Origin: Parcubacteria group bacterium GW2011_GWA2_38_13
GTDB lineage: Bacteria; Patescibacteriota; Patescibacteriia; Buchananbacterales; GWA2-38-13
Direction: 5' to 3'
Assembly (NCBI GenBank): GCA_000992395.1
Contig: LBUD01000004.1
Span: 1 to 33,221 of the forward strand
DNA length: 33,221 nucleotides
Shown in pieces: positions 2,681 to 29,137 of this stretch (position 1 is the first letter of the stretch; every line of letters starts with the position of its first letter). Under the pieces are notes generated by a model. That model was given only the letters and a program-made list of their open reading frames with translations, made no database searches and was not told where the DNA came from. The translations under genes and the position numbers were made by a program.

Positions 2681-3307
2681 ATGATTAAAAAAATTTCTAT
2701 AATACTTTTCGTATTTAGCTTTATTTTGGCAGGATGTGGCACCACGGATTTGACCAATTCAAACGAGAATACCAACAACGCCGACCAAGTTGAATCAGAT
2801 GTGAATATAAATACCAACATAAACACCAATGCCAGCCCTGAACCTCAAACAACTCCAGCACAAGAAGAGGACTATATCTCATATACGAATAAAGCTATAG
2901 GATATTCGTTGCAGTATCCCAAACGTTGGTATTGGAGGCATTACATTCGCAACGAAATAGGGGACAGAGATTCTCTTGTTGATGATTATTTTATTGCGGA
3001 TAGAGATAACGTCATTGATATTAAATCAGAAAATCTTGGGAGTATCGTTGTGGAAGTATCACGCCATGAATTAAAAGATTTTTTTTCCGGTATTGAAAAC
3101 TTTGATAAAAAAGATGTAAAAGTCGGCGGAGCAGATGCTTCCCGCTACGAGGGGGTAAGAAGTGTTGACTCGGGAAAATCTCAAAAAATTATAGAATATC
3201 AGTTTGCAAAAGATGGAAAAACTTATCGGATAATCTATACGAAAGTGGATAGTACGCAAGGCGAAGAGCAAATTTTTGAAAAAATTGTTTCAAGCTTTGT
3301 ATTGTAA
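2681..3307 (+). CDS. Putative lipoprotein, unknown function
   Basis: Signal and lipobox FILAGC, Asn/Thr-rich linker, globular C-terminal domain. Confidence 0.8.
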   Translation: MIKKISIILFVFSFILAGCGTTDLTNSNENTNNADQVESDVNINTNINTNASPEPQTTPAQEEDYISYTNKAIGYSLQYPKRWYWRHYIRNEIGDRDSLVDDYFIADRDNVIDIKSENLGSIVVEVSRHELKDFFSGIENFDKKDVKVGGADASRYEGVRSVDSGKSQKIIEYQFAKDGKTYRIIYTKVDSTQGEEQIFEKIVSSFVL

Positions 3308-7176: not shown

Positions 7177-10011
7177 ATGCCAGAAAAATTTATCATCATC
7201 AAAGGCGCGCGTGAGCACAATTTAAAAAATATTGATGTAAAAATTCCCATTGATAAAATCACGGTTATCACGGGATTATCAGGATCGGGAAAGTCGTCTT
7301 TGGCGTTTGATACCCTGTATGCCGAGGGGCAAAGAAGGTATGTGGAAAGTTTGTCCGCGTATGCGAGGCAGTTTTTGGGCGTAATGAATAAGCCCGATGT
7401 GGATAAAATTCAAGGACTTTCACCGGCAATTTCCATTGAACAAAAATCTGTTTCAAAAAATCCACGGTCAACGGTTGGAACTATCACCGAGATATACGAT
7501 TATCTCCGGCTTTTGTACGCGCGCGTTGGCGTGCCTCATTGTCCGAATTGCGCAAAATTGATAACTCCTCAGTCAGCCGAAGAAATCGTGAAAATCGTTA
7601 TGCAGGAAAAAATAGGAACAAAAATTCAAATATTCGCGCCGGTTGTGCGCTCAAGGAAGGGCACGTATGAAAATCTTTTAAAAGATTTTCATCTAAAAGG
7701 ATTTGCTCGCGCGAGAATTGACGGAAAAATTATTGAATTGGAAAATTGGGAAAATATGAAGCTTGAAAAACAATACAAACATTCCATAGAGGTAATAATA
7801 GATAGGGTCGTGGCGAATAAGAGTATGGAAAGCCGTCTGAACGAAGCTGTTGAAACCGCTTTGGCATTGGCGCAAGGTTTGGTTGCGGTTGTAACAGGCG
7901 AGGGCAAGACGGTAAAAGAAAAAATATTTTCTCAGCACAATGCCTGCATTGTTTGCGGGGTATCTTTTGAAGATATGCAACCGCGGATGTTTTCATTTAA
8001 TTCGCCCTTTGGCGCGTGTTCCGAATGTCATGGCCTGGGAGTTTCAAGAAAATTTTCCGAAAACACAGTAATACCGGATACAAGCATTTCTGTTATGGAA
8101 GGCGCCATAAAGCCATGGCAAAATATTATTGACAGCTGGCGCAAGCATCAGTTGGAGGGTTTGGCCCGGCATTATCATTTTGATTTATGGCAATCCTGGA
8201 AAGAATTGCCGGAGAAAATTAAAAGCATTTTGCTCTACGGATCAAGCGACGCAATAAATTTTCATTGGGAATCCCATAGCGGCGACACATCATCAGAATA
8301 TAAAAGGCAGTTTGAAGGTGTTATTCCGCAATTGTACCGCTTGTATGAACAGACGGATTCGCAGTATCGGCGCGAAGAAATGGAAAAATTTATGCGAATA
8401 GGGCCTTGTGAAAAATGCCAGGGAAAGCGTTTGAAGCCGGAAGTATTGGCTGTTACCGTAAACAATAAAAATATTTGGGAAGCAACCGAATTGCCTATTA
8501 TTGAATTGGAAAAATTTATTTCAACGCTTGAGCTTGGAAAAACGAAAAAAGAAATCGCGCAAGGCATTGTAAAAGAAATTCAAAACCGAACCAGATTTCT
8601 TGTTGATGTCGGGCTTGATTATCTCACGCTGTCGCGCGAGGCAGCGACTTTGGCCGGCGGAGAAGCGCAAAGAATACGTTTGGCAACGCAAATCGGATCT
8701 GAATTGCGCGGAGTTTTATATATTTTAGATGAGCCGTCCATAGGGCTTCACCAGCGCGACAACCAGAAGCTTATTTTAACGCTGAAAAAATTGCGCGATA
8801 TCGGTAATACGGTCGTGGTCGTGGAACATGATGAAGAAACTATGAATGAGGCGGATTATATAATAGATCTCGGGCTCGGCGCCGGCATCCACGGCGGACA
8901 CGTGATTTTTGAAGGAAAGCCCGAGGATATAAAAAAATCAAAAAAATCATTGACCGGGCAATATCTGTCTAAAACGCGCTGTATTGAAATTCCGCACAGA
9001 CGTAAAAAAGCTTTTAAATTTTTAGAAATTATAGGCGCGAAAGAGCATAATCTGAAAAATATTGACGTGAAAATTCCTCTGGGAGTCTTCACGTGCGTGA
9101 CGGGCGTTTCGGGATCGGGGAAAAGCACTCTTGTCAATGATATTATTTACAAAGCGCTGTATAAAATTTTTTGGGCATCAAGCGAATTGCCGGGAAAACA
9201 TAAATCCATAAAAGGATACGGTGAGATAGATCAGGCAATTATTGTTGACCAGTCGCCGATCGGGCGCACGCCAAGATCAAACCCCGCGACGTATATAGGA
9301 GTGTTCAATTACGTCAGGGAATTATTTTCGTCAACTCGCGAAGCAAAGGCGCGCGGGTATAAGCCGGGAAGATTCAGTTTCAATGTGCCCGGAGGCAGGT
9401 GTGAGGAATGCGAGGGAGACGGAGTGAAAAAAATAGAAATGCATTTTTTGCCCGATATTTATATAACATGCGAAAAATGCAAAGGAACGCGTTTTAATGA
9501 AGAAACCCTTTCGGTGCAATTTAAAGAAAAAAATATTGCTGAAGTTTTAGCTATGACCGTTGAAGAGGCTCTTGATTATTTTAAAAATATTCCAAGGATA
9601 CACAATAAGCTTCAAACGCTTTTTGATGTTGGTTTGGGATATATCGCCTTGGGGCAAAGTTCCACGACATTATCCGGAGGCGAAGCGCAAAGAATAAAAT
9701 TAACAACCGAATTATCCCGCAAAGGAACAAAAAATATTTATATTCTTGATGAGCCGACAACCGGACTTCATTTTGAGGATGTGAAAAAACTTTTAACCGT
9801 AATTAACCGGCTTGTTGAAAAAGGGAATACCGTTTTAGTTATAGAGCACAATTTGGATGTTATAAAATCCGCTGATTGGGTGATTGATTTAGGACCGGAA
9901 GGAGGGGACAAGGGCGGGCGCGTGATTGCGGAAGGAAGCCCGGAAAAAATTGCCAAGTGCGCGAAATGGTCGTATACGGGAAAATATTTAAAAGAAGTTT
10001 TGAAAAAATAA
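7177..10011 (+). CDS. uvrA: Excinuclease ABC subunit UvrA
   Basis: Two ABC ATPase halves (GLSGSGKSSLAFDT, GVSGSGKSTLVND), two LAGGEAQR/LSGGEAQR signatures, CxxC zinc motifs. Confidence 0.98.
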   Translation: MPEKFIIIKGAREHNLKNIDVKIPIDKITVITGLSGSGKSSLAFDTLYAEGQRRYVESLSAYARQFLGVMNKPDVDKIQGLSPAISIEQKSVSKNPRSTVGTITEIYDYLRLLYARVGVPHCPNCAKLITPQSAEEIVKIVMQEKIGTKIQIFAPVVRSRKGTYENLLKDFHLKGFARARIDGKIIELENWENMKLEKQYKHSIEVIIDRVVANKSMESRLNEAVETALALAQGLVAVVTGEGKTVKEKIFSQHNACIVCGVSFEDMQPRMFSFNSPFGACSECHGLGVSRKFSENTVIPDTSISVMEGAIKPWQNIIDSWRKHQLEGLARHYHFDLWQSWKELPEKIKSILLYGSSDAINFHWESHSGDTSSEYKRQFEGVIPQLYRLYEQTDSQYRREEMEKFMRIGPCEKCQGKRLKPEVLAVTVNNKNIWEATELPIIELEKFISTLELGKTKKEIAQGIVKEIQNRTRFLVDVGLDYLTLSREAATLAGGEAQRIRLATQIGSELRGVLYILDEPSIGLHQRDNQKLILTLKKLRDIGNTVVVVEHDEETMNEADYIIDLGLGAGIHGGHVIFEGKPEDIKKSKKSLTGQYLSKTRCIEIPHRRKKAFKFLEIIGAKEHNLKNIDVKIPLGVFTCVTGVSGSGKSTLVNDIIYKALYKIFWASSELPGKHKSIKGYGEIDQAIIVDQSPIGRTPRSNPATYIGVFNYVRELFSSTREAKARGYKPGRFSFNVPGGRCEECEGDGVKKIEMHFLPDIYITCEKCKGTRFNEETLSVQFKEKNIAEVLAMTVEEALDYFKNIPRIHNKLQTLFDVGLGYIALGQSSTTLSGGEAQRIKLTTELSRKGTKNIYILDEPTTGLHFEDVKKLLTVINRLVEKGNTVLVIEHNLDVIKSADWVIDLGPEGGDKGGRVIAEGSPEKIAKCAKWSYTGKYLKEVLKK

Positions 10012-12830: not shown

Positions 12831-15377
12831 ATGGATAACCCACAACTTAAGGTAAAGACAAAAATTTCTAGTCCCGGTGTGATTGTCGCTCATGTGTTTA
12901 TGATTACGCTTGCCGTGACAGTAGTCGCATTGCCGGGATTTTTTCTTGCCGCAGCTTCTTTTAGATTTAGTTTAACAAATACAAGCGCTCCGGCAACTTC
13001 TGTATCGCCGACCCCGGTAAAAACTCCGACCCCCACCCCGACGCTGATAGCCGGTAAAGTAAAGTTTTTGCGTGGTGATGCAAACAGCGATGGAAAAGTA
13101 AACATTTCTGATGCCATATATATTTTAAGAAATAAGAAATTATTAAGTACATTAAATAGGCCGGGTACGGCAATTGCCAAGGCAAATGCCGATCTTTTTT
13201 CTTGCCCCGAAAGCATGGACGTTGATAATAACGGCTTAATAAACGATGATGACGCGAAATATCTTTTAGCATTTCTTTTTCAAAACGGTAAAGCCCCTTC
13301 AGCGCCCGGCGCAACAGTTCTCGGAGTAGATCCGAAACCGGGAATATTCAGCTGCCGATGTTCTGATAATTCTTGTACCAAGGAAACAAAGGGTATGAAT
13401 AATTTTGCCATGATACAGGGAGGCGGAGGCAGTATCGGAGACCCGGAATGCAATGACGGAGTAGATAATGACGGCGACGGCGGATGCGATTCAATGGGAT
13501 GCACGGTTCGCGGAGTTCAATATCCGGCGGATCCTGATTGCGTGAATTCAGCATGGGATCAGGAAGACCCGCTATTACGTTCAAAAACCTTTGTAGAAAT
13601 CAGCCAAGGAGATGACTCTCCGGGTCTTATTTCTTTGGGGGATATAAATAGTGACGGTAAAATGGAGATAATTAAAATTTCTCAGGCAAGCAGCTGCCTT
13701 ATGGCTATTGATCCAATAACTGGCAGGGATTATTATGCACAAGCAAACCAATGGTGTGATCAAAGCAATCCATACGATAGGCCCATGGTGATTGATCTTT
13801 ATAATCAGGCAGGGGGTAAGGTAATCGCCCTTAAAAGCAATGATATGATGAGCGGCGGACAATCAATAGTTTTATATGATGCCGCAAGCGGGAAGGCAAA
13901 ATGCCGTTATACTCCGGCACAGTCTTTGGTCATGCCAATGAACGCTCCAATATATAATTATACCGCAGGGGATATTAATAAAGATGGGAAACAAGAACTT
14001 ATTGTATTAACCGCACGCGATTTTGAAACCGGCGTATTCGGTAATCCTGATTATTCCGTTAAAAGATATATAAATATTGATGTAGTCGAACCGGTAGGAT
14101 GTTCAAATATTCTAACTTTCAAAAGCCAAATGGTAGACTTTTATTCCCCTGAAGAAATACAGGATCCGCGGATGATGACAGTTGCTAATGTAGATAGCGA
14201 TAACCGTTTAGATATTTTAGTATCAAACACTTCGGGCGTGGTGAAATATTCTTTACCTTCTAGTGGCGTTATGACAGAGCAATTTTTAATGATGAAAGAT
14301 GCCTCGGGTAATACAATGCCAGCAGGTGGCGCAATACTGGGGGTAGCGGATTTCGATAGAGATTCAATGCAAGAATTTATTATCGGACAAGGGTGGGCGA
14401 CGTCCAATGAACCGGTATACGCTGTAAAATATACTACTACGCAATTTTCTGATCAGTGGGGAGGATCCTATAACGTTCTTAGATTATTATGGAAGATTGA
14501 TAATGTTTCTTCATGGTATGATTCTCGCATCGCTGATTTAGATAATAATGGCACCCTTGAATTGATTACAAACGACGGTAGTTTCATCAGTATATATAAC
14601 ACCTCTGTCGCAACGGGCGCAGCCATTACACCCATACAGGGTATGGAAACGAAAGGCGTAAATACTATGGTTATTGCTGACATGGATGGCGATGGCAGAA
14701 GAGACATTGTGACATTGGGATACGGGCTAGATCCTGAAGCGCCCATGTTCACCGGCAGCAAGATAATGGTATTTAACCTTTTGGGTGAAAAGATGGGCGA
14801 GCAATATCTTCCGGGTGATTCCATGAGTTTCAGTTTGTCAATTGCCGATATTGATAAAAACGGATTACTGGATATTGTTGTTGACGACGGGAACAGAATT
14901 TTTGTGACCGAGGTGAATTCATATTTTTATCAGGCAAAGCCAAGAGATGGCCATCCATGGAAATCGTATTTCTATAATTTCCAAAATTGGAATACTGCGA
15001 ATTCTTGTACGGTAAATAGCGATTGTGCGTACTCATTGGCTTGCGGTACATATACGTGTGTAAATTATCAATGCGTTAGGAATTATAGTGCATGTCCTGC
15101 CACACCTGTTGGCGCAGCATTTATGCGCGGTGATGTTGATAAGGATGGAAAATACAGCATTAATGATCCGGTTACAATTCTTTCATATCTTTTCCAGGGG
15201 AAGCCAAGTTTAACATGTTTGGATGCCGCGGATGTTGATGATAACGGTAAAGTAGATATGAGTGATGCCGTCTACCTGCTTGGGTATCAATTTCTAAGCG
15301 ATCCGTCGAGTCTCCCGGCTCCATTCAATGTTAAAGGCACTGATCCAACGCAAGACAATTTACCACCTTGCACATAA
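12831..15377 (+). CDS. Membrane-anchored surface protein: two dockerin type I-like regions flanking FG-GAP/VCBS repeats
   Basis: N-terminal TM, PTPVKTPTPTPT linker, dockerin-like GDANSDGKVNISDAIYIL..DVDNNGLINDDDAKYLLAFLF and GDVDKDGKYSINDPVTILSYLF..DVDDNGKVDMSDAVYLLGYQF, with several intervening D-x-(D/N)-x-(D/N)-G repeats. Confidence 0.88.
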   Translation: MDNPQLKVKTKISSPGVIVAHVFMITLAVTVVALPGFFLAAASFRFSLTNTSAPATSVSPTPVKTPTPTPTLIAGKVKFLRGDANSDGKVNISDAIYILRNKKLLSTLNRPGTAIAKANADLFSCPESMDVDNNGLINDDDAKYLLAFLFQNGKAPSAPGATVLGVDPKPGIFSCRCSDNSCTKETKGMNNFAMIQGGGGSIGDPECNDGVDNDGDGGCDSMGCTVRGVQYPADPDCVNSAWDQEDPLLRSKTFVEISQGDDSPGLISLGDINSDGKMEIIKISQASSCLMAIDPITGRDYYAQANQWCDQSNPYDRPMVIDLYNQAGGKVIALKSNDMMSGGQSIVLYDAASGKAKCRYTPAQSLVMPMNAPIYNYTAGDINKDGKQELIVLTARDFETGVFGNPDYSVKRYINIDVVEPVGCSNILTFKSQMVDFYSPEEIQDPRMMTVANVDSDNRLDILVSNTSGVVKYSLPSSGVMTEQFLMMKDASGNTMPAGGAILGVADFDRDSMQEFIIGQGWATSNEPVYAVKYTTTQFSDQWGGSYNVLRLLWKIDNVSSWYDSRIADLDNNGTLELITNDGSFISIYNTSVATGAAITPIQGMETKGVNTMVIADMDGDGRRDIVTLGYGLDPEAPMFTGSKIMVFNLLGEKMGEQYLPGDSMSFSLSIADIDKNGLLDIVVDDGNRIFVTEVNSYFYQAKPRDGHPWKSYFYNFQNWNTANSCTVNSDCAYSLACGTYTCVNYQCVRNYSACPATPVGAAFMRGDVDKDGKYSINDPVTILSYLFQGKPSLTCLDAADVDDNGKVDMSDAVYLLGYQFLSDPSSLPAPFNVKGTDPTQDNLPPCT

Positions 15378-17754: not shown

Positions 17755-18465
17755 ATGGCAGAAGAAAAACAAAACAATAGTATTATTTTGCAGAATAAGC
17801 CGACGCATCTTTTTATTTTGGTTTGGTTAAAGACGGCTGTATTTGGATTTTTTGTATTTTTTATATTCTGCACATATCTTTTTATAAGCAATGGGCGTAT
17901 AAGTTTATATATTATTAACGGGGCAATAGCGGAAACTGCCATGTTGCTTGTTGGTCTTTCCATGATCTTAAGCAGCGTTTCTTATTTTTGGAATTTCGCC
18001 GACAATACATTGATATATAGAAAATATCTTGGGGTCGGGGGCTTAATCTGTGGAATTATACATGCTCTGGTTATTCTATTATTTTTGGGAAATGAATTTC
18101 CTTTCCCCGGATATTTTTTAAATTATTGGATACCGATAAGCGCCGGGTTGCTTGCCATCATCCTTTTTATTTTTATTGTAATAATTTCCACAAAGAAAAT
18201 GATAGCTCGAATTGGAGGACAGCGCTGGAGAAAGACTATCCGGTACGTGGGATATATCGGGTATGCATTTGTTATTATACATATATCCATGCAGAAATAT
18301 CCTGAATGGATCGCGTGGATATCTGCGAAAAATTTTCAAACGCTTTTGCCATTAAGTATTTTTAACACTTTGTTTTTTTTCATAGTAATAATAATGCGCT
18401 TAGCGCTATGGCGCGCGCTTTTTAAAAAATCTATAAGACAGGGATCAGCAACTGGTAATCAGTAA
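17755..18465 (+). CDS. Polytopic membrane protein, possibly ferric-reductase-like transmembrane family
   Basis: About six hydrophobic segments with His residues in helices (CGIIHALV, VIIHISMQ); the C-terminal GSATGNQ is encoded by the repeat at 18439-18473. Confidence 0.6.
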   Translation: MAEEKQNNSIILQNKPTHLFILVWLKTAVFGFFVFFIFCTYLFISNGRISLYIINGAIAETAMLLVGLSMILSSVSYFWNFADNTLIYRKYLGVGGLICGIIHALVILLFLGNEFPFPGYFLNYWIPISAGLLAIILFIFIVIISTKKMIARIGGQRWRKTIRYVGYIGYAFVIIHISMQKYPEWIAWISAKNFQTLLPLSIFNTLFFFIVIIMRLALWRALFKKSIRQGSATGNQ

Positions 18466-18473
18466 TCGGGAAT
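18439..18473. repeat. Left inverted-repeat arm flanking the four-helix-bundle gene
   Basis: CAGGGATCAGCAACTGGTAATCAGTAATCGGGAAT. Confidence 0.75.
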
Positions 18474-18475
18474 TT

Positions 18476-18847
18476 ATGGAACAAATAAAAAATTTTTGGG
18501 AATTGGAGGCTTGGAAGAAGGCAAATGTTCTGGCTATAGAAATTTATATATTGACAAAAAATTTCCCGTTGGAAGAGAAATACGGAATGATATCACAATT
18601 AAGAAGAGCCGCTACTTCGGTTGCGGCAAACATAGCAGAAGGATTTAGTAGATACCATTATAAGGATAAAATTAAATTTTATTATAATGGACGCGGGTCA
18701 GCTTCGGAAGTGCAGAGCTTTATTATTTTTTGTAAGGACATCGGATTTGTGGATGCCAAAAGAGCCCTTGAAATCGTTGGCAAATATAATGAAGAATTAA
18801 GGCTATTAAACGGTTTAATAAATTCAATTTCTAAACAAATAAGTTAG
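18476..18847 (+). CDS. Four helix bundle protein (S23 / 23S rRNA intervening-sequence protein family)
   Basis: F-W-LEAWKKANVLAIEIY..TKNFPLEEKYGMISQLRRAATSVAANIAEGFSR and GSASEVQSFI. Confidence 0.93.
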   Translation: MEQIKNFWELEAWKKANVLAIEIYILTKNFPLEEKYGMISQLRRAATSVAANIAEGFSRYHYKDKIKFYYNGRGSASEVQSFIIFCKDIGFVDAKRALEIVGKYNEELRLLNGLINSISKQIS

Positions 18848-18926
18848 GAATCAGGGACCAGTAATCGGTAATCAGGAAAATTTTCTCGATTCCTGATTAC
18901 TAGTTACTGATTACTGATCCCCAACT
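18841..18926. repeat. Imperfect palindrome overlapping the IVP stop codon
   Basis: AAGTTAGG..CAGTAATCGGTAATCAGGAA-loop-TTCCTGATTACTAGTTACTGATTACTGATCCCCAACTT. Confidence 0.8.
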
Positions 18927-18943
18927 TACTGACCCCCAACACT

Positions 18944-19450
18944 ATGTTTTTCACTATCCTCGATCTCATCCTTATACTCATCACTTTTATTTTTATTACC
19001 TATGGTTTTATCATGGGTTTGATTGAGGCGCTTGGAACGCTTGTAGGCATTGCCTTGGGTGCGTGGCTTGGCGGGATTTTTTATAAAGATACGGGCGATT
19101 GGCTTTCCTCGTTTATGTTTGGGCAAAAAAATGTTGCCTACGTAGTCGCATTTGTTTTGATTTACGTTGTATCCAGTAAAGCCATAGGAATTTTATTTTG
19201 GTTTCTCAATAAAATTTTTAAACTTATCGCGATTATTCCGTTTTTGAAAACCATCAATCGCGTGGCAGGCGCTACTTTAGGTTTAATTGAGGCGGCTTTA
19301 ATGCTTGGAGTGATATTAATATTTTTATCCCATTTCCCTTTTTCCTCTTGGCTTACGGCCGAGCTTGCCAAATCGCAAATAGCTCTGTGGCTTATGGCAA
19401 TCGCCAAAGTGCTTACGCCGCTTTTACCAAAGGTGCTTTTTCTACAATAA
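18944..19450 (+). CDS. CvpA family membrane protein
   Basis: Four TM segments, DLILILITFIFITYGFIMGLIEALGTLVGIALGAWLG. Confidence 0.85.
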   Translation: MFFTILDLILILITFIFITYGFIMGLIEALGTLVGIALGAWLGGIFYKDTGDWLSSFMFGQKNVAYVVAFVLIYVVSSKAIGILFWFLNKIFKLIAIIPFLKTINRVAGATLGLIEAALMLGVILIFLSHFPFSSWLTAELAKSQIALWLMAIAKVLTPLLPKVLFLQ

Positions 19451-19451
19451 T

Positions 19452-20030
19452 ATGTTTTTTTTAAATAGGAATAAGATTTTAAGAAAAATTTTTCTAAAAA
19501 TAGATAACAATAGAAAGAATGATATACTAAGAAAAATTGTTGTTTATCTGAAAAAAGAAGATAAAATTCTTGATTTAGGCTGCGGAAATTGCAATGTGTC
19601 AAAAGATTTAATCGGCAATGGTTATGATGTTACGCCGATTGATATTAAAAATAAAAGTTTTTTCAATGATATCGCACCAGTGATTTATGACGGGAAAAAA
19701 TTGCCATACAATAATAATTATTTTGATATCGTTTTGGTAACAACGGTTTTGCATCACACGAAAGATCCCGTATCCGTGTTGGTTGAAGCTATGAGAGTTT
19801 CAAAGAGATTAATCGTAATGGAAGATCTTTACGAGAGCAGGGTTCAAAAATATTTGACATTTATTATGGATAGTTTAGTAAATTTTGAAATATTTGGACA
19901 CCCCCATGGCAATAAAACTCAAAAAGAATGGAATGATATTTTTAAAAATTTAGGGTTAAAAATTTTAGATGTTAATACTCATAAATTTTGGAAATTTTTT
20001 ATCACGCGTACATTTTATTTAGAAAAATAA
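19452..20030 (+). CDS. Class I SAM-dependent methyltransferase
   Basis: ILDLGCGNCNVSKDL motif I, YFDIVLVTTVLHHTKDP, MRVSKRLIVME. Confidence 0.88.
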   Translation: MFFLNRNKILRKIFLKIDNNRKNDILRKIVVYLKKEDKILDLGCGNCNVSKDLIGNGYDVTPIDIKNKSFFNDIAPVIYDGKKLPYNNNYFDIVLVTTVLHHTKDPVSVLVEAMRVSKRLIVMEDLYESRVQKYLTFIMDSLVNFEIFGHPHGNKTQKEWNDIFKNLGLKILDVNTHKFWKFFITRTFYLEK

Positions 20031-20098
20031 ATAAAAGCTGCAACAAAAAAAAGATTATTACGAAGAAATCATTTTTATTATTATTTTTTTAAAAATTT

Positions 20099-21403
20099 AT
20101 GAAAAATTTTGAAACAGGCTCGCGGGAGCCGGAAGAAGAGATTCCGCTGCAAGAAGAGGCGGGAAAGTTGCAGGAAGGGCTTGGCAAAAAAGGTTTTATA
20201 GAAAAACATTTTTCCGAAGTTCAAACAAGAGAAGCGCCGTTAAGAGGCGCTAAAAATCCCGAACAAACAAGGGGCGAAACTTTTCGTTTTGAAAGAGGGC
20301 AAATTCTTAAAGCTTACAAAATTTTAAGAAAAGAAATAAGAGATGCCGAAGAAAATGGGGAAGACGCGGCTCCAAATAAAAATCTTTTAAAAGAAATTCG
20401 TAGCAGAGCGAAAATTTTAGAAATAAATCTTGATAAATTAGAAAGACAATATTATGAAAATGTTAAAATTGTTAATATAGAAACTGAATTCGGAAAATTT
20501 TCAGTTCCAGTCGTTGAGCTTGATTTAAGAAAAAAAGAAGAAGAAGGAGAAAAAGGGGAAAAAAAAGATGAAAGAATTCCTTATTTTTTATTAGGACCCG
20601 TTGCTACAAACTATCATCAATCAGCAGCGCTTTCAATGGGCTTGGCGTTGGAAGGAGAAAGGGTTTTGGTTCCAGCTTGGCCAGAGCAAGCAATGGTTGG
20701 TCGTCCTGATAATTTTGGCGAACTATTAAAACAGCAAGAAGGATTAAAGCTTCATAAAGAATATGCCAAACAAACAATACGACAAATGGATTTAGAAACG
20801 GTTAACCTTATGGGATATTCAATGGGTGGAGCAGTTTCTCTGGAATTAGCCCAAGACCCAGATTTTCAAGAATTACGGGATTTAATAATCGTAGAACCAG
20901 CCGGATTAGAGGAAAAAAGTCTTGCTGGAATTGGAAAAGATTTTGTGTTAAAGGAAGGCTTAATTAAAACTCTTCCTTATTCCGAGGCAATGATTAAAAC
21001 CTTAAAACAAGGCAGTAGAGATGATACAGGAAGTTTAAAATTTCTTATACAAGACGGAAGAATTTTGGGAAAAAAACAATTTGACGCAGAAAAATTGGCG
21101 AATATACATCCGAAAGGCAGGTATCAATTATGGGTTGGTACAAAAAGCTCTATAACAGACGACAAAACAGCAGTAAGGATTTTTTTAGAAGCCGATGAAC
21201 TTTGTAAACAAAAAGATCCCGAAGCAAACCCTGTTGAAATTCATATTGCAGAAGGTGGAACTCATGGCTGGCCGTCTCTTAATAGTCTTGGATTTTCAAG
21301 AATGTTAAAGCAAGAAAAGCCGAAAGAACAAATTTCAACTTTCAAAATTTCTGATTTAGAAAATTCAGCAATGGCAGGAATTTTAGAAGATATAAATCAA
21401 TAA
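20099..21403 (+). CDS. Alpha/beta hydrolase with charged N-terminal extension
   Basis: Nucleophile elbow GYSMGG, candidate His in GGTHGWP; Lys/Glu-rich N-terminus; no signal peptide. Confidence 0.8.
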   Translation: MKNFETGSREPEEEIPLQEEAGKLQEGLGKKGFIEKHFSEVQTREAPLRGAKNPEQTRGETFRFERGQILKAYKILRKEIRDAEENGEDAAPNKNLLKEIRSRAKILEINLDKLERQYYENVKIVNIETEFGKFSVPVVELDLRKKEEEGEKGEKKDERIPYFLLGPVATNYHQSAALSMGLALEGERVLVPAWPEQAMVGRPDNFGELLKQQEGLKLHKEYAKQTIRQMDLETVNLMGYSMGGAVSLELAQDPDFQELRDLIIVEPAGLEEKSLAGIGKDFVLKEGLIKTLPYSEAMIKTLKQGSRDDTGSLKFLIQDGRILGKKQFDAEKLANIHPKGRYQLWVGTKSSITDDKTAVRIFLEADELCKQKDPEANPVEIHIAEGGTHGWPSLNSLGFSRMLKQEKPKEQISTFKISDLENSAMAGILEDINQ

Positions 21404-21435
21404 AAAAACTGTTTTTGGCAACCGGCTTAGAGGTA

Positions 21436-21787
21436 GTTTCTCAATAAAATTTTTAAACTCATCGCGATTATTCCGTTTTTGAAAACCATCAACCGTATAG
21501 CCGGTGCAGTTTTGGGATTGGTTGTGGCAACATTGATCCTTGGAGTGATATTAATATTTTTATCTCATTTTCCATTTTCCGACTGGCTAACAGCCGAGCT
21601 TGCCAAATCGCAAATAGCTCTGTGGCTTATGGCTATTGCAAAAGTGCTTACGCCGCTTCTTCCTAAAATTATTATAATTAAAATAATACTAAAAAATACT
21701 TACGGCTTATTATTTACGGCTTACAGCTGTTATGTGCATAACTTTATGCGCATTTTTTGTTATAATAAAGATATAAAATTATATTAA
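21436..21787 (+). pseudogene. Duplicated 3' fragment of the CvpA-family gene
   Basis: FLNKIFKLIAIIPFLKTINRIAGAVLGL..LGVILIFLSHFPFSDWLTAELAKSQIALWLMAIAKVLTPLLPK matches the C-terminal half of the 18944-19450 product; N-terminal half absent. Confidence 0.85.
21758..21766 (+). promoter_or_regulatory. Extended -10 element (TGT-TATAAT)
   Basis: TGTTATAAT, 23 nt upstream of the ATG at 21790. Confidence 0.5.
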
Positions 21788-21789
21788 AC

Positions 21790-24498
21790 ATGCCATCTAA
21801 ACCTCCTATTTATTCAGAAGTCAATACACGAACTGCTCTAAACACACAATTTGCTTTAGCGCTATCTTTTTTTGGCATTTCTTTTTTTGTTGCCATGGCA
21901 AGCTATACCATGAGTACGATTAACGGAAATGTTAATAATAGTAATGGCAATGTAAATGGGGGAACGCCAACACCAACCAAGACCCCTACACCGACACCTA
22001 CGCCCACACCAACCCCATCCCCCGCTTGCTGTGAGCTGGATTGTCAGGCCATCCAGGGGATTGCAACCTTTGACGGTAAAACAAAAGTGAATAAATGCGT
22101 GCAGACAACAGCGGATCAATGCAGTTGTTTACGGCAGGCGACGATCTGCAGCGATGGTTCCCAAGGAGCAGGCGATGGTTTTAATTGTAAAAGCGCCACT
22201 CCTCATCCCGGTATGGAATGTAAAGAAGACCCGGCTGATAGTATAAAAAAATGCATGCAACCTCCTCCACCACCGCCTCCTGCCTGTTGCGAAATCACCT
22301 GCAAGCTTTTTAATTGGATGGCAGGATTTCCTCCCACTTTTACTACTTGCGTTTCAGCAACTCAAGATCAATGCAAGGATGATGCCATGTGTGAACAGCG
22401 GTATCAAACTAAATGTACCGCAGGATATGATGAGCCATCAGGTGATATGTATGAATTTTCCTCCTGCGCTTTTCATGCCAACATGGTTTGCGATGCTGAA
22501 AAAATTCCGCCAAAATGTATGGCTCCGCCTCTGCCCAAAACCGGCTGTTGTGAATATAAAGACAATGCAGGGGCGCCTCAATGCATGGAAAACCAGACTG
22601 AATTGGGATGCAAAAATCTTAACGGCGATTGGGATGGATTCTGCAATGCCTGTGATATAATCACCAATTCTTGCCGTGACGCGCTTTGTTGCCAAGCAGG
22701 CAACCGATGTTCACAAGTTTCCCAGGCGCAAGATTGCGCCAACCTTGGCGGTACGCCGTCTCGAGGCCAGTGCAACAATACCATGGGCAAGTGCGAAGAA
22801 ACCGGCTGTTGCGACAATTTTGCCGATCCGAATAATAACCAAGATCATCAATTGTCAAAATCTGAATGTGATCAAAAATCGGGAGAGTGGCATCCCGCTA
22901 CTCTTTATGACCACACCACGGCTTCTTGTGAAGAACTCGGCTGCTGCCAAGCCGGGATTGCGGCAGCTTCGCAATGTACTGATAGTTCAAAAGACAAATG
23001 CCCAAATAACTGGGTGCAAAACGCTGAGTGTAGCTATCCAACTGGCGAGTGCGTGCCAAGACCAGGCGACATAAAAATGAGTATTGATGCGATGCCCGAT
23101 TCGGGTGATGAGGGGAATAAATATGTCCGCCCGACTACGGATCAAACCATAATATGTAGTGGCAGGGTGGAGAATTACAAAGGATGGAGCGTTGCATTAT
23201 ATATATCCGGGCTTAACGGCCAGCCGTTCACGCACGATTATGATGTTTGTAAATCAGGTAATGATCCGTGCAATTTTTCCATTTCCATCCCCGGCAGCGC
23301 TACTATTGCGGGGGATACGGTGCGCTGTACTCTCGATGCGTATGCCCCGGGTGATAATTACGAAACAACAAGTGATGATACAACGGTTCAAGTATGCGTG
23401 TATTTAGGAACCGGTACGGTGCCGAGAGAGACAGCATCAAATCAATTCATTGATGTTGTATTCCTCGGAAATAAATATGCTGATCCTGCCGATTACACCG
23501 CTTGGAAAAGTATTGCTTTGCGATATAAAAATGTGATTGCCGCCACGGATCCATTCAGCCAATATAATAATAAATTGCGATATTGGAGAATTGATACAAG
23601 TGGTCCGGGTGGAAGCGGGAATGATTTAGGATGTAAAAGCGACGGATATTGTGATAATCCTGCTTTGTTAAATCTTTTTGATGTATGTGATTTTGGTTAC
23701 AATCGCGGTGTTGTTGTGCTGAATAATGATGATATGCTTGCGGGGGCAAGGGCATTCACGAAACAAAATTATATCGTCGTGCCCTCGAAAAAGAAAATTT
23801 TAAACATATTTACCCCCGAACACACCATGCTCCATGAATTTGGACATTTATTCGGTTTATCTGATGAATATTTTTCGGCGCGCGAGGGATGGAATGAACT
23901 GTTTGCTTTGAAAAGCAGCACATCAAATTGTTCCGTTGAAAACCTTACTGTCTCCACGGAACTAAATCCTTGCATAAAAGAAAAAGGCGGCGTCTTTGCT
24001 AACCCTCCAGGTCGTGGATGGTGCGATAGAGTGAATCAGGATCCAGTAGCCGATCCTTCTTGCGCTGGTCTGAGAATTAATAAAACGCCCGATGGCTATA
24101 CTGATCCATCGTCAGAATGCCTCACTAAACAAGGATGCGTTGGCACGGCAGCACGATATTTTGATGCGTCATGTAAATTAAAAAATAATCCAAATGAATG
24201 CTGGAATACCCCAAACTGTCAATGGACATCGGTATGTTTTGATTATCACCAGAAGGTATGTATAAATAAATACGCTGACTATAATATTGGGATTAATTGT
24301 GATGCCGGTACGGGTTGCTACCCTGGTTGCGCATCTTTCCGCTCATCTATTGATTCAGTGATGAACAACCGCGGTAATACCTCATTGTTTAATGCGGTAT
24401 CAAAAAAGATTATCGAAAATGGAATCCTCTGTGAAACTATGGGTGTTGCGCAATGCCCAATTATCCAACAGCCACCGACATATTCCGATCCGTTTTAG
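21790..24498 (+). CDS. Membrane-anchored Cys-rich protein with zinc metallopeptidase domain (M64/IgA-peptidase-like)
   Basis: N-terminal TM, (PT)n linker, repeated Cys modules (GCC..C..C), HEFGHLFGLSDEY zinc motif in a domain starting IDVVFLGNKY. Confidence 0.82.
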   Translation: MPSKPPIYSEVNTRTALNTQFALALSFFGISFFVAMASYTMSTINGNVNNSNGNVNGGTPTPTKTPTPTPTPTPTPSPACCELDCQAIQGIATFDGKTKVNKCVQTTADQCSCLRQATICSDGSQGAGDGFNCKSATPHPGMECKEDPADSIKKCMQPPPPPPPACCEITCKLFNWMAGFPPTFTTCVSATQDQCKDDAMCEQRYQTKCTAGYDEPSGDMYEFSSCAFHANMVCDAEKIPPKCMAPPLPKTGCCEYKDNAGAPQCMENQTELGCKNLNGDWDGFCNACDIITNSCRDALCCQAGNRCSQVSQAQDCANLGGTPSRGQCNNTMGKCEETGCCDNFADPNNNQDHQLSKSECDQKSGEWHPATLYDHTTASCEELGCCQAGIAAASQCTDSSKDKCPNNWVQNAECSYPTGECVPRPGDIKMSIDAMPDSGDEGNKYVRPTTDQTIICSGRVENYKGWSVALYISGLNGQPFTHDYDVCKSGNDPCNFSISIPGSATIAGDTVRCTLDAYAPGDNYETTSDDTTVQVCVYLGTGTVPRETASNQFIDVVFLGNKYADPADYTAWKSIALRYKNVIAATDPFSQYNNKLRYWRIDTSGPGGSGNDLGCKSDGYCDNPALLNLFDVCDFGYNRGVVVLNNDDMLAGARAFTKQNYIVVPSKKKILNIFTPEHTMLHEFGHLFGLSDEYFSAREGWNELFALKSSTSNCSVENLTVSTELNPCIKEKGGVFANPPGRGWCDRVNQDPVADPSCAGLRINKTPDGYTDPSSECLTKQGCVGTAARYFDASCKLKNNPNECWNTPNCQWTSVCFDYHQKVCINKYADYNIGINCDAGTGCYPGCASFRSSIDSVMNNRGNTSLFNAVSKKIIENGILCETMGVAQCPIIQQPPTYSDPF

Positions 24499-24509
24499 TT
24501 TTAAATATT

Positions 24510-25355
24510 ATGCTTTTTGATTCTCACGCCCACATAAATTTTGAGTCTTTTGAAAATATTTGGAAAGAAGTTTTGGATGACTGCCAAAAAAATGATATTT
24601 GGGTGGTAAATATCGGTTCACAATTTCCGACTTCAAAACGAGCTGTTGAAATTGCCGAAGAATATGAAAAAGGAGTGTACGCATCCATCGGAGTCCATCC
24701 CATCCATTCTCATGAACAAGAGAATGCATTTGATTATAAAAAATTTGTTGATCTGATAACTGTAGGGGCGGGTCTTGTGCCCGCCCAAGATTCGGGCGAC
24801 CACAAGGGTCGCCCCTACAATACGAATAAAATCGTTGCAATCGGCGAAACCGGCCTTGATTTTTTTCATAGCGCCAAATATTTTGAAATACAAAAGAAAA
24901 CATTTATTGAACAGATAAATTTGGCAAAAGAATTTGATTTGTCGCTGATCATCCATGGGCGCAACAGCAAGGATGGCGCAATAAACTGTTATCAAGAGAT
25001 TTATAAAATTATAAAAAAAGAAAAAGTAAAAAATGCCGTAGTGCATTGTTTCGGAGGAAACGCTGATGAGGCAAAACAATTTATGGGCTTAGGGTTGTAT
25101 ATCGGCGTCACCGGCATTGTCACTTTCAAGAATGCAAAAGAACTTCAGTCAATGGTTCGCGATGTCATACCTTTAGAAAAAATACTTATTGAAACCGATT
25201 CGCCGTACCTCGCGCCGGATCCGCACCGCGGAGAACAAAACAAACCGCAATACGTGGAATATGTTGCGCGAAAAATCGCTGAACTTAAAAATATTTCGTA
25301 TGAAAAAGCGTGTGAAGTTTTATGCGCAAACGCACGGAAATTTTATAATGTTTAA
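24510..25355 (+). CDS. TatD family hydrolase
   Basis: MLFDSHAHINF, ASIGVHPIHSHE, AIGETGLDFF, VVHCFGG, ETDSPYLAPDPHRGEQNKPQYV. Confidence 0.95.
   Translation: MLFDSHAHINFESFENIWKEVLDDCQKNDIWVVNIGSQFPTSKRAVEIAEEYEKGVYASIGVHPIHSHEQENAFDYKKFVDLITVGAGLVPAQDSGDHKGRPYNTNKIVAIGETGLDFFHSAKYFEIQKKTFIEQINLAKEFDLSLIIHGRNSKDGAINCYQEIYKIIKKEKVKNAVVHCFGGNADEAKQFMGLGLYIGVTGIVTFKNAKELQSMVRDVIPLEKILIETDSPYLAPDPHRGEQNKPQYVEYVARKIAELKNISYEKACEVLCANARKFYNV
24762..24818. repeat. 57-bp palindromic repeat inserted in frame in tatD
   Basis: GTAGGGGCGGGTCTTGTGCCCGCCC..GGGCGACCACAAGGGTCGCCCCTAC; encodes VGAGLVPAQDSGDHKGRPY. Confidence 0.9.
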
Positions 25356-25420: not shown

Positions 25421-28400
25421 ATGAACATATTAAATTTCTTAAAAAAAGTTAATGTAAATATTATTCTCGTTGGATATTTTTTTGTTTATTTATTTGTATT
25501 TTCTTCTGGCACGGTATTTGCGGCGCGAACACCTGGCGCAACGGCATATTGGCCGATCAAAGAAAATGCCGGTTACATTATTTCTGATCAAGGGACGGCT
25601 CCAAAAATGGATCTCATTATTTTTAATGGAGGATCAAATCCAAACATTACCTTTTTACCGGGCTCTCTAAATGGAATTTTTTTTAATGACGCTTTTTTCA
25701 GTAATTTAACCCATCTTAGCGCTTCTACTGATAGTAAGATTGTGAATGCTATTAAAGCTGTTGGAAACACAGGATTTACTTTTGATGTCTGGTATAAGCC
25801 CTCTGATGTCTCTGCTACAGTTAATGCACCTATTATCGCGTCGTCACTTAATAATACTCTAATTAATTTTGCCATAATACAAGAAGGAAGAGATGTTGTA
25901 TTTAAGGGCATCTCAAAAAAGAATTTATCTTCGCCCCCTGCTTATCAGGAAATTCATAGATGTGTGGATTGTTTATTGGCGGGCACACCTTATTATATAG
26001 GATTTTCTGCGAATACAAATAATACTATAAATTATAGAGTTATTCCCTCTGGAACCATTAACATCACAAATTCTCAATATAATGTGGGATTTGCTCCGGT
26101 CTACCTGGATTACGAGGAATGGGATGCATCCTGGCCGTTTCATGTTGGAAGTTATTGGCCGGTTGCTCCAAATATTGCTCCAGGTATGGGGGGGTTGATT
26201 AAGGGAGATATTTATCAACTAGCATTTTATAATAAGTCGTTAACACCTGAAGAAACGGCTAACAATTATTTCGCAGGATATAGAACCACTGATCTCGACG
26301 GGGATGGGCATGCTTCTACCGCGGATGGCGGCGAAGACTGCAACGATAGTAATGCAAATATTCATCCGGGGCTTGCAGATACTTGTGAGACACTTAATAT
26401 TGATGATGATTGTAGTGGCACGGCAGATGAAGACGAACAGGTTAAAATATATTATCGTGATAACGATGGTGATACGTTTGGGAATACTTCCAATTCGGCA
26501 ACGCAGTGTTTGAGTACAAGCTCAGAACCGACTAAATGGGTTTTAGATAATGCTGACTGTAACGACAATAACGCCTCTATCAAGCCTGGTGCTATAGAAA
26601 TTTGTGATAATATTGATAATAATTGCAATGCCTCCATTGATGAGGGCTTTACGCAAACAACATATTATCTTGATAATGACGGTGACGGAAGGGGCGTTTG
26701 GAATGGTGTTCCACAGCAATATTGTACAGGAAGCCAGCCCGCAGGATGGGTTACAAATAATAATGATTGTGATGACAGCGATGTTGCCAGTACAAACGAA
26801 CCTTGGTGTCATATAGGTGGGACGTGTATTCAAAATTTAGACCGTAATTCCGCAAACCAATGTCAACAATGTATGTCCGCCGTTTCTCACACAGCATGGC
26901 AGTCTATGCCACCAAACACTTCCTGTTCAGACGGTAATGCTTGTACTAACCCCGATACTTGTCAGGCAGGAGCGTGTTCTGCCGGAGCAGCCATTTCCTG
27001 TGCGGCTGCCACAGCCTGTAAAAATGCCAGCACCTGTAATATTGCAACGGGCGCGTGTTCAATACCCATCAACAAAGTAAATGGTACCGGCTGCTCAGAC
27101 GGTAATGCTTGTACTAACCCCGATACTTGTCAGGCAGGATCATGCACCTCTGGAATCGCTATTATTTGCGCTTCGGCAACAGACTGTAAAAGTGCATCAG
27201 CTTGCAATACTGCAACGGGCGCATGTTCAGTGCCAATCAACAAAGCCAACGGCATAGTCTGTGGCGATTTGAATGCTGACGGCTGTTCCTATGATACCTG
27301 CAATGCCGGTATTTGTACGGCTGGCGTAACCCCACCCCCATCATGCGTAGACGGCAATGCCTGCACTCAAGATGTTTGCACGGACACTGCAAATCCAGAC
27401 AAAACAAACTATTCCTGTGCCCACCCTGCGGCTGCGGGCAAATGCGTGATTGGAGGCACATGTTATGCCAATGGCGATAAAAATCCAGCAAATGATTGCC
27501 AGTACTGTAATACCGCCCTCGGCACTTCCGTATGGTCAAATTACGCTACGACGCAGATTTGCAACAAAGACTCTAACGGCTGCACCAAGGATGACAAGTG
27601 CAATGGCACAGGCACATGTGTTGCGGGAACAAATCAGGCCTGCGACGATTCCAAAACCTGCACCACAGATTCCTGCACGAACACGGGTACGGCAGCAAAT
27701 CAATTTAATACATTCTCTTGCAGCAACCCAGTAAACGTAAATACCTGTTTAATCGCTGGCGTTTGTAAAAACGAAAACGATACCAATGGAACCAACACCT
27801 GCCAAATATGCAAATCAGCCTCAAGTAAGACTGCCTGGACCAACCAGCCAAACATCACGGCCTGCAACAAAGATTCCAACGGTTGTACTTTGAATGACAA
27901 ATGCAGTGGGCTTAACCCAAGCACGTGCGTTGCTGGCGCGGCGCCAAACTGCGAAGAAACACCAGCCAATCTCTGCACGGCAGATGCTTGCACATCTACG
28001 GGCAATAATACTTATAATTGTACGCATGCAGCAGTTGCTGGCAAATGTGTGATTGGAGGCGTGTGTTATGCCAATGGCGATAAAAATCCTGTAAACGATT
28101 GCCAGTATTGTAATACAGCAGCCAACACTTTTGCCTGGTCCAATTATGCTGCAACACAAATCTGCAACAAAGATTCTAACGGCTGCACCAAGGATGACAA
28201 GTGCAATGGCACAGGTACATGTGTTGCGGGAACAAATCAGGCCTGCGACGATTCCAAAACCTGCACCACAGATTCCTGCACAAACACGGGTATGGCAGCA
28301 AATCAATTTAATACATTCTCTTGCAATAGCGTGTTTAATGGAGTCGGATGCTTTATAGCAAGCTCATGTTATGCGGCTAACGTCGTAAACCCGGGGAATA

Positions 28401-29137
28401 AATGCCAAATGTGTAATCCCGCAACCAACTCTACCGGCTGGACTCCAAAAAATTGTAATGATTTAAATGCCTGCACTTCCGATTCATGTAATCTTGGATC
28501 CGGAGCGTGTGTTAATACAAATACGGTAGTGTGTAATACTCCTCCCAATATAGCTCCCAATTCGGCACAATGTTATAATTCGCCGGGTACATGTACTCCT
28601 GCGACAGGCATTTGCAATTATACGCCGAAACCAAATACGGAAAGCTGCATTGATGGTTTGGTTTGCACAGAAAATGAAAAGTGCAATGGCGCTGGAAGCT
28701 GTTTGGGAACGCGTATTACCGTAGAATCAAATTGCGACGACGGCATTGATAATGATTGCGATGACAAATGCGATACAAGCGGATGCGCGGGTATGGCAGC
28801 AGATCTTCCGGATTGCAGTGACGTCAATAAGCCCGTCGCGGTTATTAGTACGCCATTTAATACAAAAAAAGGAAAAATAATTTTTGCTTTTGTGGGGACG
28901 TCAATTACTATTGATGCGTCATTAAGCAGAGATCCAAGACGGGAGGACATTGAATTCAGTTGGATTAAAAAAACCGTGTCAGATGTTACTTTGGCAGGCA
29001 CAGATACTCAAAGAACCACATTATCAAATCTAACAAAAGAAGAAATTTTAGAAATTGAGCTTACTGTAAAAAATGAAAGCAAATTTACGGGAACAGATAG
29101 GGTATTTGTTGTTGTGAGCAAAGATTGCAGAAATTAG
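25421..29137 (+). CDS. Large secreted protein: LamG-like N-terminus, MopE-type metal-binding repeats, Cys-rich repeats, PKD-like C-terminus
   Basis: Signal peptide ending TVFAA; DLDGDGHAST..DCNDSNANIHPG, YYRDNDGDTFG..DCNDNNASIKPGAIEICDNIDNNC, YYLDNDGDGRG..DCDDSD; repeats CSDGNACTNPDTCQAG and CNKDSNGCTKDDKCNGTGTCVAG. Confidence 0.85.
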   Translation: MNILNFLKKVNVNIILVGYFFVYLFVFSSGTVFAARTPGATAYWPIKENAGYIISDQGTAPKMDLIIFNGGSNPNITFLPGSLNGIFFNDAFFSNLTHLSASTDSKIVNAIKAVGNTGFTFDVWYKPSDVSATVNAPIIASSLNNTLINFAIIQEGRDVVFKGISKKNLSSPPAYQEIHRCVDCLLAGTPYYIGFSANTNNTINYRVIPSGTINITNSQYNVGFAPVYLDYEEWDASWPFHVGSYWPVAPNIAPGMGGLIKGDIYQLAFYNKSLTPEETANNYFAGYRTTDLDGDGHASTADGGEDCNDSNANIHPGLADTCETLNIDDDCSGTADEDEQVKIYYRDNDGDTFGNTSNSATQCLSTSSEPTKWVLDNADCNDNNASIKPGAIEICDNIDNNCNASIDEGFTQTTYYLDNDGDGRGVWNGVPQQYCTGSQPAGWVTNNNDCDDSDVASTNEPWCHIGGTCIQNLDRNSANQCQQCMSAVSHTAWQSMPPNTSCSDGNACTNPDTCQAGACSAGAAISCAAATACKNASTCNIATGACSIPINKVNGTGCSDGNACTNPDTCQAGSCTSGIAIICASATDCKSASACNTATGACSVPINKANGIVCGDLNADGCSYDTCNAGICTAGVTPPPSCVDGNACTQDVCTDTANPDKTNYSCAHPAAAGKCVIGGTCYANGDKNPANDCQYCNTALGTSVWSNYATTQICNKDSNGCTKDDKCNGTGTCVAGTNQACDDSKTCTTDSCTNTGTAANQFNTFSCSNPVNVNTCLIAGVCKNENDTNGTNTCQICKSASSKTAWTNQPNITACNKDSNGCTLNDKCSGLNPSTCVAGAAPNCEETPANLCTADACTSTGNNTYNCTHAAVAGKCVIGGVCYANGDKNPVNDCQYCNTAANTFAWSNYAATQICNKDSNGCTKDDKCNGTGTCVAGTNQACDDSKTCTTDSCTNTGMAANQFNTFSCNSVFNGVGCFIASSCYAANVVNPGNKCQMCNPATNSTGWTPKNCNDLNACTSDSCNLGSGACVNTNTVVCNTPPNIAPNSAQCYNSPGTCTPATGICNYTPKPNTESCIDGLVCTENEKCNGAGSCLGTRITVESNCDDGIDNDCDDKCDTSGCAGMAADLPDCSDVNKPVAVISTPFNTKKGKIIFAFVGTSITIDASLSRDPRREDIEFSWIKKTVSDVTLAGTDTQRTTLSNLTKEEILEIELTVKNESKFTGTDRVFVVVSKDCRN
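27448..27722 (+). repeat. Intragenic direct repeat, copy 1 (copy 2 at 28051-28325)
   Basis: In-frame copies offset by 603 bp; the 3' ~160 bp differ at only a few positions by eye. Confidence 0.85.
28051..28325 (+). repeat. Intragenic direct repeat, copy 2
   Basis: See 27448-27722. Confidence 0.85.

What the first reader, a model, noticed from the sequence alone, without database searches (positions are those of the whole stretch)
19201..21670. Duplicated cvpA 3' end brackets a methyltransferase + alpha/beta-hydrolase pair: candidate integrated cassette
The complete CvpA-family gene (18944-19450) is followed after 1 nt by a methyltransferase, then a hydrolase, then at 21436 a second copy of the cvpA 3' region without its 5' half. 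Homology starts sharply at GTTTCTCAATAAAATTTTTAAAC (19201 and 21436) and ends near GTGCTTACGCCGCTT. The ends of the repeat are nearly identical while the middle differs, giving a mosaic. This is the geometry left when DNA integrates into a gene and restores its 3' end (attL/attR-like). No integrase is present, so this would be a remnant, a trans-mobilised cassette, or a recombination product. The two cargo genes may form an undescribed unit.
Basis: partly seen in the sequence, partly recalled or inferred. Interest (0 to 1): 0.75.

Follow-up and report, generated by a model that had tools for sequence, protein, structure and literature searches.

The report
Foreign genes inserted behind cvpA
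Two foreign genes were inserted at the end of a conserved gene in a small-genome Patescibacteria bacterium in a way that rebuilt the gene's end and left the old end behind as a scrap, and the same genome holds five more insertions built the same way with no obvious enzyme to make them.

Summary
A 231-nt direct repeat (19201-19431 / 21436-21666, 85% identical) brackets a methyltransferase and a hydrolase. The second copy is a 5'-truncated cvpA 3' end. Copy differences are mostly synonymous (omega about 0.10), so the copies diverged as working genes before truncation, and identity is significantly blocky. In the same-order relatives examined cvpA is followed by tatD without this cargo, so the site is empty there. 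The hydrolase has a clear homologue in only one other of 381 class genomes. MTase homologues are scattered and were not found beside the hydrolase, so the two genes are not a conserved unit.

Beyond the brief, scanning the whole host genome (1.04 Mb Patescibacteria MAG) found five more loci of the same form: intact gene, cargo, truncated copy of that gene's 3' end. All six are at 3' ends, none at 5' ends. No common core was found and no cassette carries an integrase. None were seen in about 1 Mb of relatives.

Best reading: incoming DNA carrying cargo plus a homologous 3' end recombined into the gene and displaced the native end. The geometry resembles e14/icd and displaced toxin 3' ends; its recurrence at unrelated genes in one reduced genome is unusual.

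The parts
18944..19450 (+). cvpA (Colicin_V family), intact; its 3' part (from 19201) is repeat copy 1, probably delivered with the cargo
   Evidence: Pfam PF02674 9.7e-20; metG-cvpA-tatD order conserved in relatives
19201..19431 (+). repeat copy 1 (inside cvpA, ends 19 nt before the ORF end)
19452..20030 (+). cargo gene 1: class I SAM-dependent methyltransferase, 192 aa
   Evidence: Pfam PF08241 1.9e-12; 43-49% homologues in 5 of the other class genomes searched, at other loci
20099..21403 (+). cargo gene 2: 434-aa protein with a C-terminal alpha/beta-hydrolase-like region (GYSMGG motif)
   Evidence: weak NCBIfam hydrolase matches; clear homologues only in G044 at 35-38%, plus one marginal hit
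21404..21435 (.). right end of the cargo; non-homologous junction into copy 2
   Evidence: alignment
21436..21666 (+). repeat copy 2: 5'-truncated cvpA 3' fragment, the probable displaced native 3' end
   Evidence: stop codon missing at the natural place
21790..24498 (+). 902-aa metalloprotease-like protein, a further lineage-specific gene between copy 2 and tatD
   Evidence: weak Peptidase_M64 match; absent from relatives' loci
24453..25355 (+). tatD, the conserved native neighbour of cvpA (homology starts about 24513)
   Evidence: follows cvpA in the relatives' loci L048-L058

Best explanation
Cargo DNA acquired from outside, carrying a homologous cvpA 3' end joined to MTase and hydrolase genes, entered the host. 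It recombined through the shared cvpA stretch, so the incoming 3' end completed the resident gene. On its other side it was joined without homology inside the resident cvpA, leaving the native 3' end downstream as a dead fragment. This is homology-facilitated illegitimate recombination, or equivalently a single crossover by a circle carrying [cvpA 3' end + cargo]. Shown: empty sites in relatives, coding-type divergence of the copies, mosaic identity, no integrase in the insert, five more loci of the same form in this genome. Inferred: that the incoming DNA carried the 3' end, the route of entry, RecA dependence, and which copy is native. A consequence: recombination between the direct repeats would excise the cargo and leave an intact cvpA.
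For: Empty site: cvpA followed by tatD without this cargo in the same-order relatives examined. Copies diverged as coding DNA (omega 0.10, third-position bias p = 1.9e-6), which a 5'-truncated fragment is not expected to do after truncation, so two alleles from different lineages probably met. Blocky identity (0 of 20000 permutations). Five further loci of the same form: holA C17:3191-3245/12539, radical-SAM gene C41:7663-7769/11291, C38:3215-3113/688, sortase C23:22681-22771/20300-20390, 75-aa gene C44:7360-7554/4621-4815. holA-rpsT-bactofilin is contiguous in most relatives, with 9.3 kb of cargo between holA and its 3' copy here. The holA copy-2 tail (VMRG*) sits beside native rpsT and has the one-residue-longer form seen in many relatives. 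Cargo composition is atypical in two of six (55.7% GC in C41, 99.8th percentile; 32.7% in cvpA, 5.7th percentile). RecA present. Literature: displaced effector 3' ends attributed to this mechanism (PMC5361080).
Against: No donor and no same-genus genome was found, so the empty site is seen only in distant relatives and the direction of transfer is inferred. ComEC (PF03772) was not found in this 83%-complete genome. The cvpA copies are about equally similar to relatives (15 versus 11 of 29), so which copy is native is unresolved for cvpA itself. The mechanism does not by itself explain why all six events are at 3' ends.
Confidence: 0.58

Rival explanations
1. Remnants of integrase-dependent elements (e14/icd type): each cargo once belonged to an element whose attP carried the target gene's 3' end; the integrase has been lost or acted in trans.
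For: Same geometry as e14 in icd: 165-bp duplicated 3' segment, 12 nt exchanges, reading frame restored (PMC11148124). All six at gene 3' ends, as integrases often prefer (general knowledge); in several loci differences concentrate toward the stop codon.
Against: No integrase in any cassette; only one tyrosine recombinase (311 aa, Xer-like architecture, C52) and two serine recombinases (C62, C29) in the genome, none on a cassette contig. Six unrelated targets with no shared core motif. No phage hits.
Confidence: 0.17
2. Assembly artefact of mixed strains: cargo-bearing and cargo-free versions were joined head to tail in the MAG.
For: Single MAG of 63 contigs, no reads available; the pattern was not seen in about 1 Mb of relatives.
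Against: The first identical block of the repeats is 24, 51, 84, 75, 13 and 13 nt, not a constant k-1, and 13 is below usual k-mer sizes. An assembler does not know strand or genes, yet all six are at 3' ends (sign test p = 0.03, counts). cvpA copies are too diverged (dS 0.6) for strain variants.
Confidence: 0.12
3. Old tandem duplication of cvpA followed by insertion between the copies and decay of the second.
For: Coding-type divergence would fit two once-functional paralogues.
Against: No relative has tandem cvpA genes; does not explain five other loci; the sharp 5' start and identity blocks would need extra events.
Confidence: 0.06

Closest known systems
Prophage e14 in icd of Escherichia coli K-12 (PMC11148124)
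   Same: Insertion near the gene's 3' end, incoming DNA restores the reading frame with a mostly synonymous version, native 3' end left as a fragment on the far side
   Different: e14 has an integrase gene (intE) and phage genes; here a 2-gene cargo, no integrase, and six different targets in one genome
Displaced effector 3' ends and orphan immunity genes in T6SS/Rhs loci (PMC5361080)
   Same: Incoming module anchored by homology in the gene, joined without homology on the other side, shifts the old 3' end downstream
   Different: There the effector module itself is the selected variant; here the encoded C-terminus hardly changes and unrelated genes are added behind conserved genes
Merodiploids formed by natural transformation in Streptococcus pneumoniae (PMC3784515)
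   Same: Transformation creating duplications with partly repeated donor DNA
   Different: Those are 100-900 kb tandem duplications; here 50-230 nt repeats around 2-9 kb cargo

Membership tests
Integrase-dependent integrative element at a gene 3' end (e14/icd type) | Duplicated 3' end of target gene at both borders, target gene restored | tested here: met
Integrase-dependent integrative element at a gene 3' end (e14/icd type) | Integrase gene within the element | tested here: not met
   PF00589 only at C52, PF00239 only at C62 and C29
Integrase-dependent integrative element at a gene 3' end (e14/icd type) | Common core sequence for one recombinase across sites | tested here: not met
   no motif shared beyond shuffles among the six repeats
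Homology-facilitated illegitimate recombination product | Homologous anchor on one side, non-homologous junction on the other | tested here: met
   cvpA homology in copy 1, no similarity left of copy 2
Homology-facilitated illegitimate recombination product | Microhomology at the illegitimate junction between donor and recipient | not testable with these tools
   donor sequence unknown
Homology-facilitated illegitimate recombination product | DNA uptake and recombination machinery in the host | tested here: inconclusive
   RecA found; ComEC not found in the 83%-complete genome
Tandem gene duplication and decay | Two full adjacent cvpA genes in relatives | tested here: not met
   single cvpA in relatives; no same-genus genome available
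Conserved MTase-hydrolase unit | Both genes neighbours in other genomes | tested here: not met
   no co-occurrence in the homologues' loci held, flanks from about 1.3 kb to 8 kb

The most novel reading that the evidence does not exclude
This Patescibacteria lineage acquires genes through a recurrent route in which cargo travels with a portable 3' end of a conserved gene, integrates by general recombination, appends the cargo behind that gene, rebuilds the gene, and stays excisable by recombination between the two 3' ends: recombinase-free mobile cassettes addressed by gene-end homology.
Probability: 0.3. Interest if true: 0.72.

Novelty: new variant of a known kind. Interest (0 to 1): 0.52.

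Why it matters
Reduced Patescibacteria genomes gain many genes, but how foreign DNA enters them is poorly known. Six scars of one form in one genome give a readable signature (intact gene, cargo, 3'-end scrap) that can be searched for in thousands of genomes. It would show whether general recombination at gene ends, without mobile-element enzymes, is a major entry route.

Tried and rejected
IMG/VR scans with hydrolase, MTase and CvpA gave no relatives; blastn of the insert against phage records gave none. A genome-contig scan with CvpA gave none. The C19 repeat (226 nt, 86%) looked similar but is non-coding, belongs to a dispersed family and flanks what looks like an IS110-type transposase (my reading of the sequence): excluded. 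C16, C6, C2, C23:678 and C45 repeats have further copies in the genome: excluded as dispersed repeats. Cargo codirectionality with the target gene (18 of 19 ORFs) is not informative, because 83% of neighbouring genes are codirectional anyway. A weak shared motif at cargo right ends (4 of 6) is AT-rich, one of several tests, and not trusted. DNA folding at the junctions shows nothing unusual. PADLOC shows no convincing defence link (one weak MTase match). A PDB sequence search with the hydrolase found nothing. The few literature searches made found no description of this pattern in Patescibacteria.

Full report
1. The observation. The window is contig C4 of a 1.04 Mb, 63-contig genome estimated 83% complete. 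Its closest named relatives by MetG are Patescibacteria MAGs (Parcubacteria SURF_54, 64%; a Falkowbacteria bin, 60%), so the host is most likely a Patescibacteria bacterium. The repeat exists exactly as described: 19201-19431 and 21436-21666, 231 nt, 85% identical, with no further copy in the genome. The upstream copy lies inside an intact cvpA (PF02674); the downstream one has no 5' half and no stop codon at the natural place.

2. Divergence between the copies. Over 76 shared codons, 48 are identical, 21 differ synonymously and 7 non-synonymously; dS 0.61, dN 0.06. Third-position changes are in strong excess (p = 1.9e-6). A 5'-truncated fragment is not expected to diverge under protein selection, so the copies most likely diverged as working genes and were brought together later. 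Identity is blocky: identical stretches at the start, middle and end around a block with almost every codon changed (0 of 20000 permutations have so few runs). This suggests crossover or gene conversion between two alleles; the longest run taken alone is not significant (p = 0.09).

3. Relatives. In same-order genomes the order is rsmI-metG-cvpA-tatD, with tatD starting within tens of bases of cvpA in most loci examined (loci L048-L057); L058 has a longer gap and a divergent cvpA. In the window, MTase, hydrolase, the cvpA fragment and a 902-aa metalloprotease-like gene lie between cvpA and tatD. None of them is at this site in relatives. The hydrolase has clear homologues in one other genome of 381 in the class, at 35-38% (plus one marginal hit); the MTase has 43-49% homologues in five others among 363 class genomes searched. 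In the homologues' loci held, the two do not occur together. They look like separate accessory genes, not a conserved unit.

4. The same structure recurs. I rebuilt the host genome from stretches (1,036,695 bases) and compared it with itself. Five further two-copy loci show an intact gene, then cargo, then a 5'-truncated copy of that gene's 3' end: holA (C17, 9.3 kb of B12/radical-SAM, GH3 and other genes); a radical-SAM activating-type gene beside what looks like an anaerobic ribonucleotide reductase (C41, one 1140-aa protein with dockerin and PPDK_N matches, 55.7% GC against 35-39% in the flanks); a conserved unknown gene (C38, two secreted-type proteins, one with a peptidoglycan-binding domain); a sortase (C23, three ORFs including RmlD-like and UDP-glucose-dehydrogenase-like); and a 75-aa gene (C44, three ORFs; here nearly the whole small gene is repeated, so it is the weakest case). 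Domain calls; composition. For holA, the contiguous holA-rpsT-bactofilin order in most relatives shows a second empty site, and the copy-2 tail next to rpsT has the one-residue-longer form seen in many relatives. The two copies end at or within about 20 nt of the stop codon and often carry different last residues. All six cases are at 3' ends; the same scan found none at 5' ends (sign test p = 0.03, small numbers). None were found in 600 kb of G005, 200 kb of G025 and 198 kb of other relatives' loci.

5. Mechanism. A recombinase with one target is unlikely: no cassette carries one, the genome has a single tyrosine recombinase of Xer-like architecture and two serine recombinases on other contigs, and the six repeats share no motif. 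The common element is homology to the end of whichever gene is hit. The best reading is that incoming DNA carried [3' end of gene X + cargo]; it recombined in X, so that its own 3' end completes the gene, and was joined without homology inside the resident X, leaving the native end as a scrap. A linear molecule (homology-facilitated illegitimate recombination) and a circle (Campbell-type single crossover) give the same product and cannot be told apart here. RecA is present; ComEC was not detected, which leaves the uptake route open. The literature describes Patescibacteria in general as competent and rich in transferred genes (PMC12455944).

6. Artefact. No reads were available. A mixed-strain de Bruijn error would make the repeat begin with a constant k-1 identical bases; the observed first identical blocks are 24, 51, 84, 75, 13 and 13 nt. 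The 3'-end bias and the dS of 0.6 in cvpA also speak against it, but absence from other sampled genomes keeps this rival alive (about 0.12).

7. Novelty. The geometry is known from e14/icd (165 bp, 12 exchanges; PMC11148124) and from displaced toxin 3' ends attributed to homology-facilitated illegitimate recombination (PMC5361080). New here are the recurrence at six unrelated genes in one reduced genome and the lack of any integrase in the cassettes. I therefore call it a new variant of a known kind.

Noticed in passing
window 18476-18847, flanks 18430-18480 and 18846-18943: A 23S rRNA-intervening-sequence (four-helix-bundle) gene sits between metG and cvpA, flanked by palindromic AGTAATCAGGAATC-type repeats that occur elsewhere in the genome; absent from this site in relatives.
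   Followed up: partly
L111 (C17) 3191-3245 / 12539: 9.3 kb of B12-binding radical-SAM, GH3-family and other genes between holA and a copy of the holA 3' end, splitting the conserved holA-rpsT pair.
   Followed up: yes
L094 (C41) 7663-7769 / 11291; L091 (C38); L143 (C23); L097 (C44): Four more cassettes of the same form behind a radical-SAM gene, a conserved unknown gene, a sortase and a 75-aa gene.
   Followed up: partly
L113 (C19) 6498-6717 / 8781-8998: What looks like an IS110-type transposase gene lies between two copies of a dispersed non-coding repeat.
   Followed up: no
whole genome G000: Dense dispersed repeats of 100-140 nt, many matching in both orientations; possibly MITE-like.
   Followed up: no
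window 12831-15377, 21790-24498, 25421-29137: Large secreted-type proteins (dockerin-like, metalloprotease-like, cysteine-repeat) interrupt gene order conserved in relatives.
   Followed up: no
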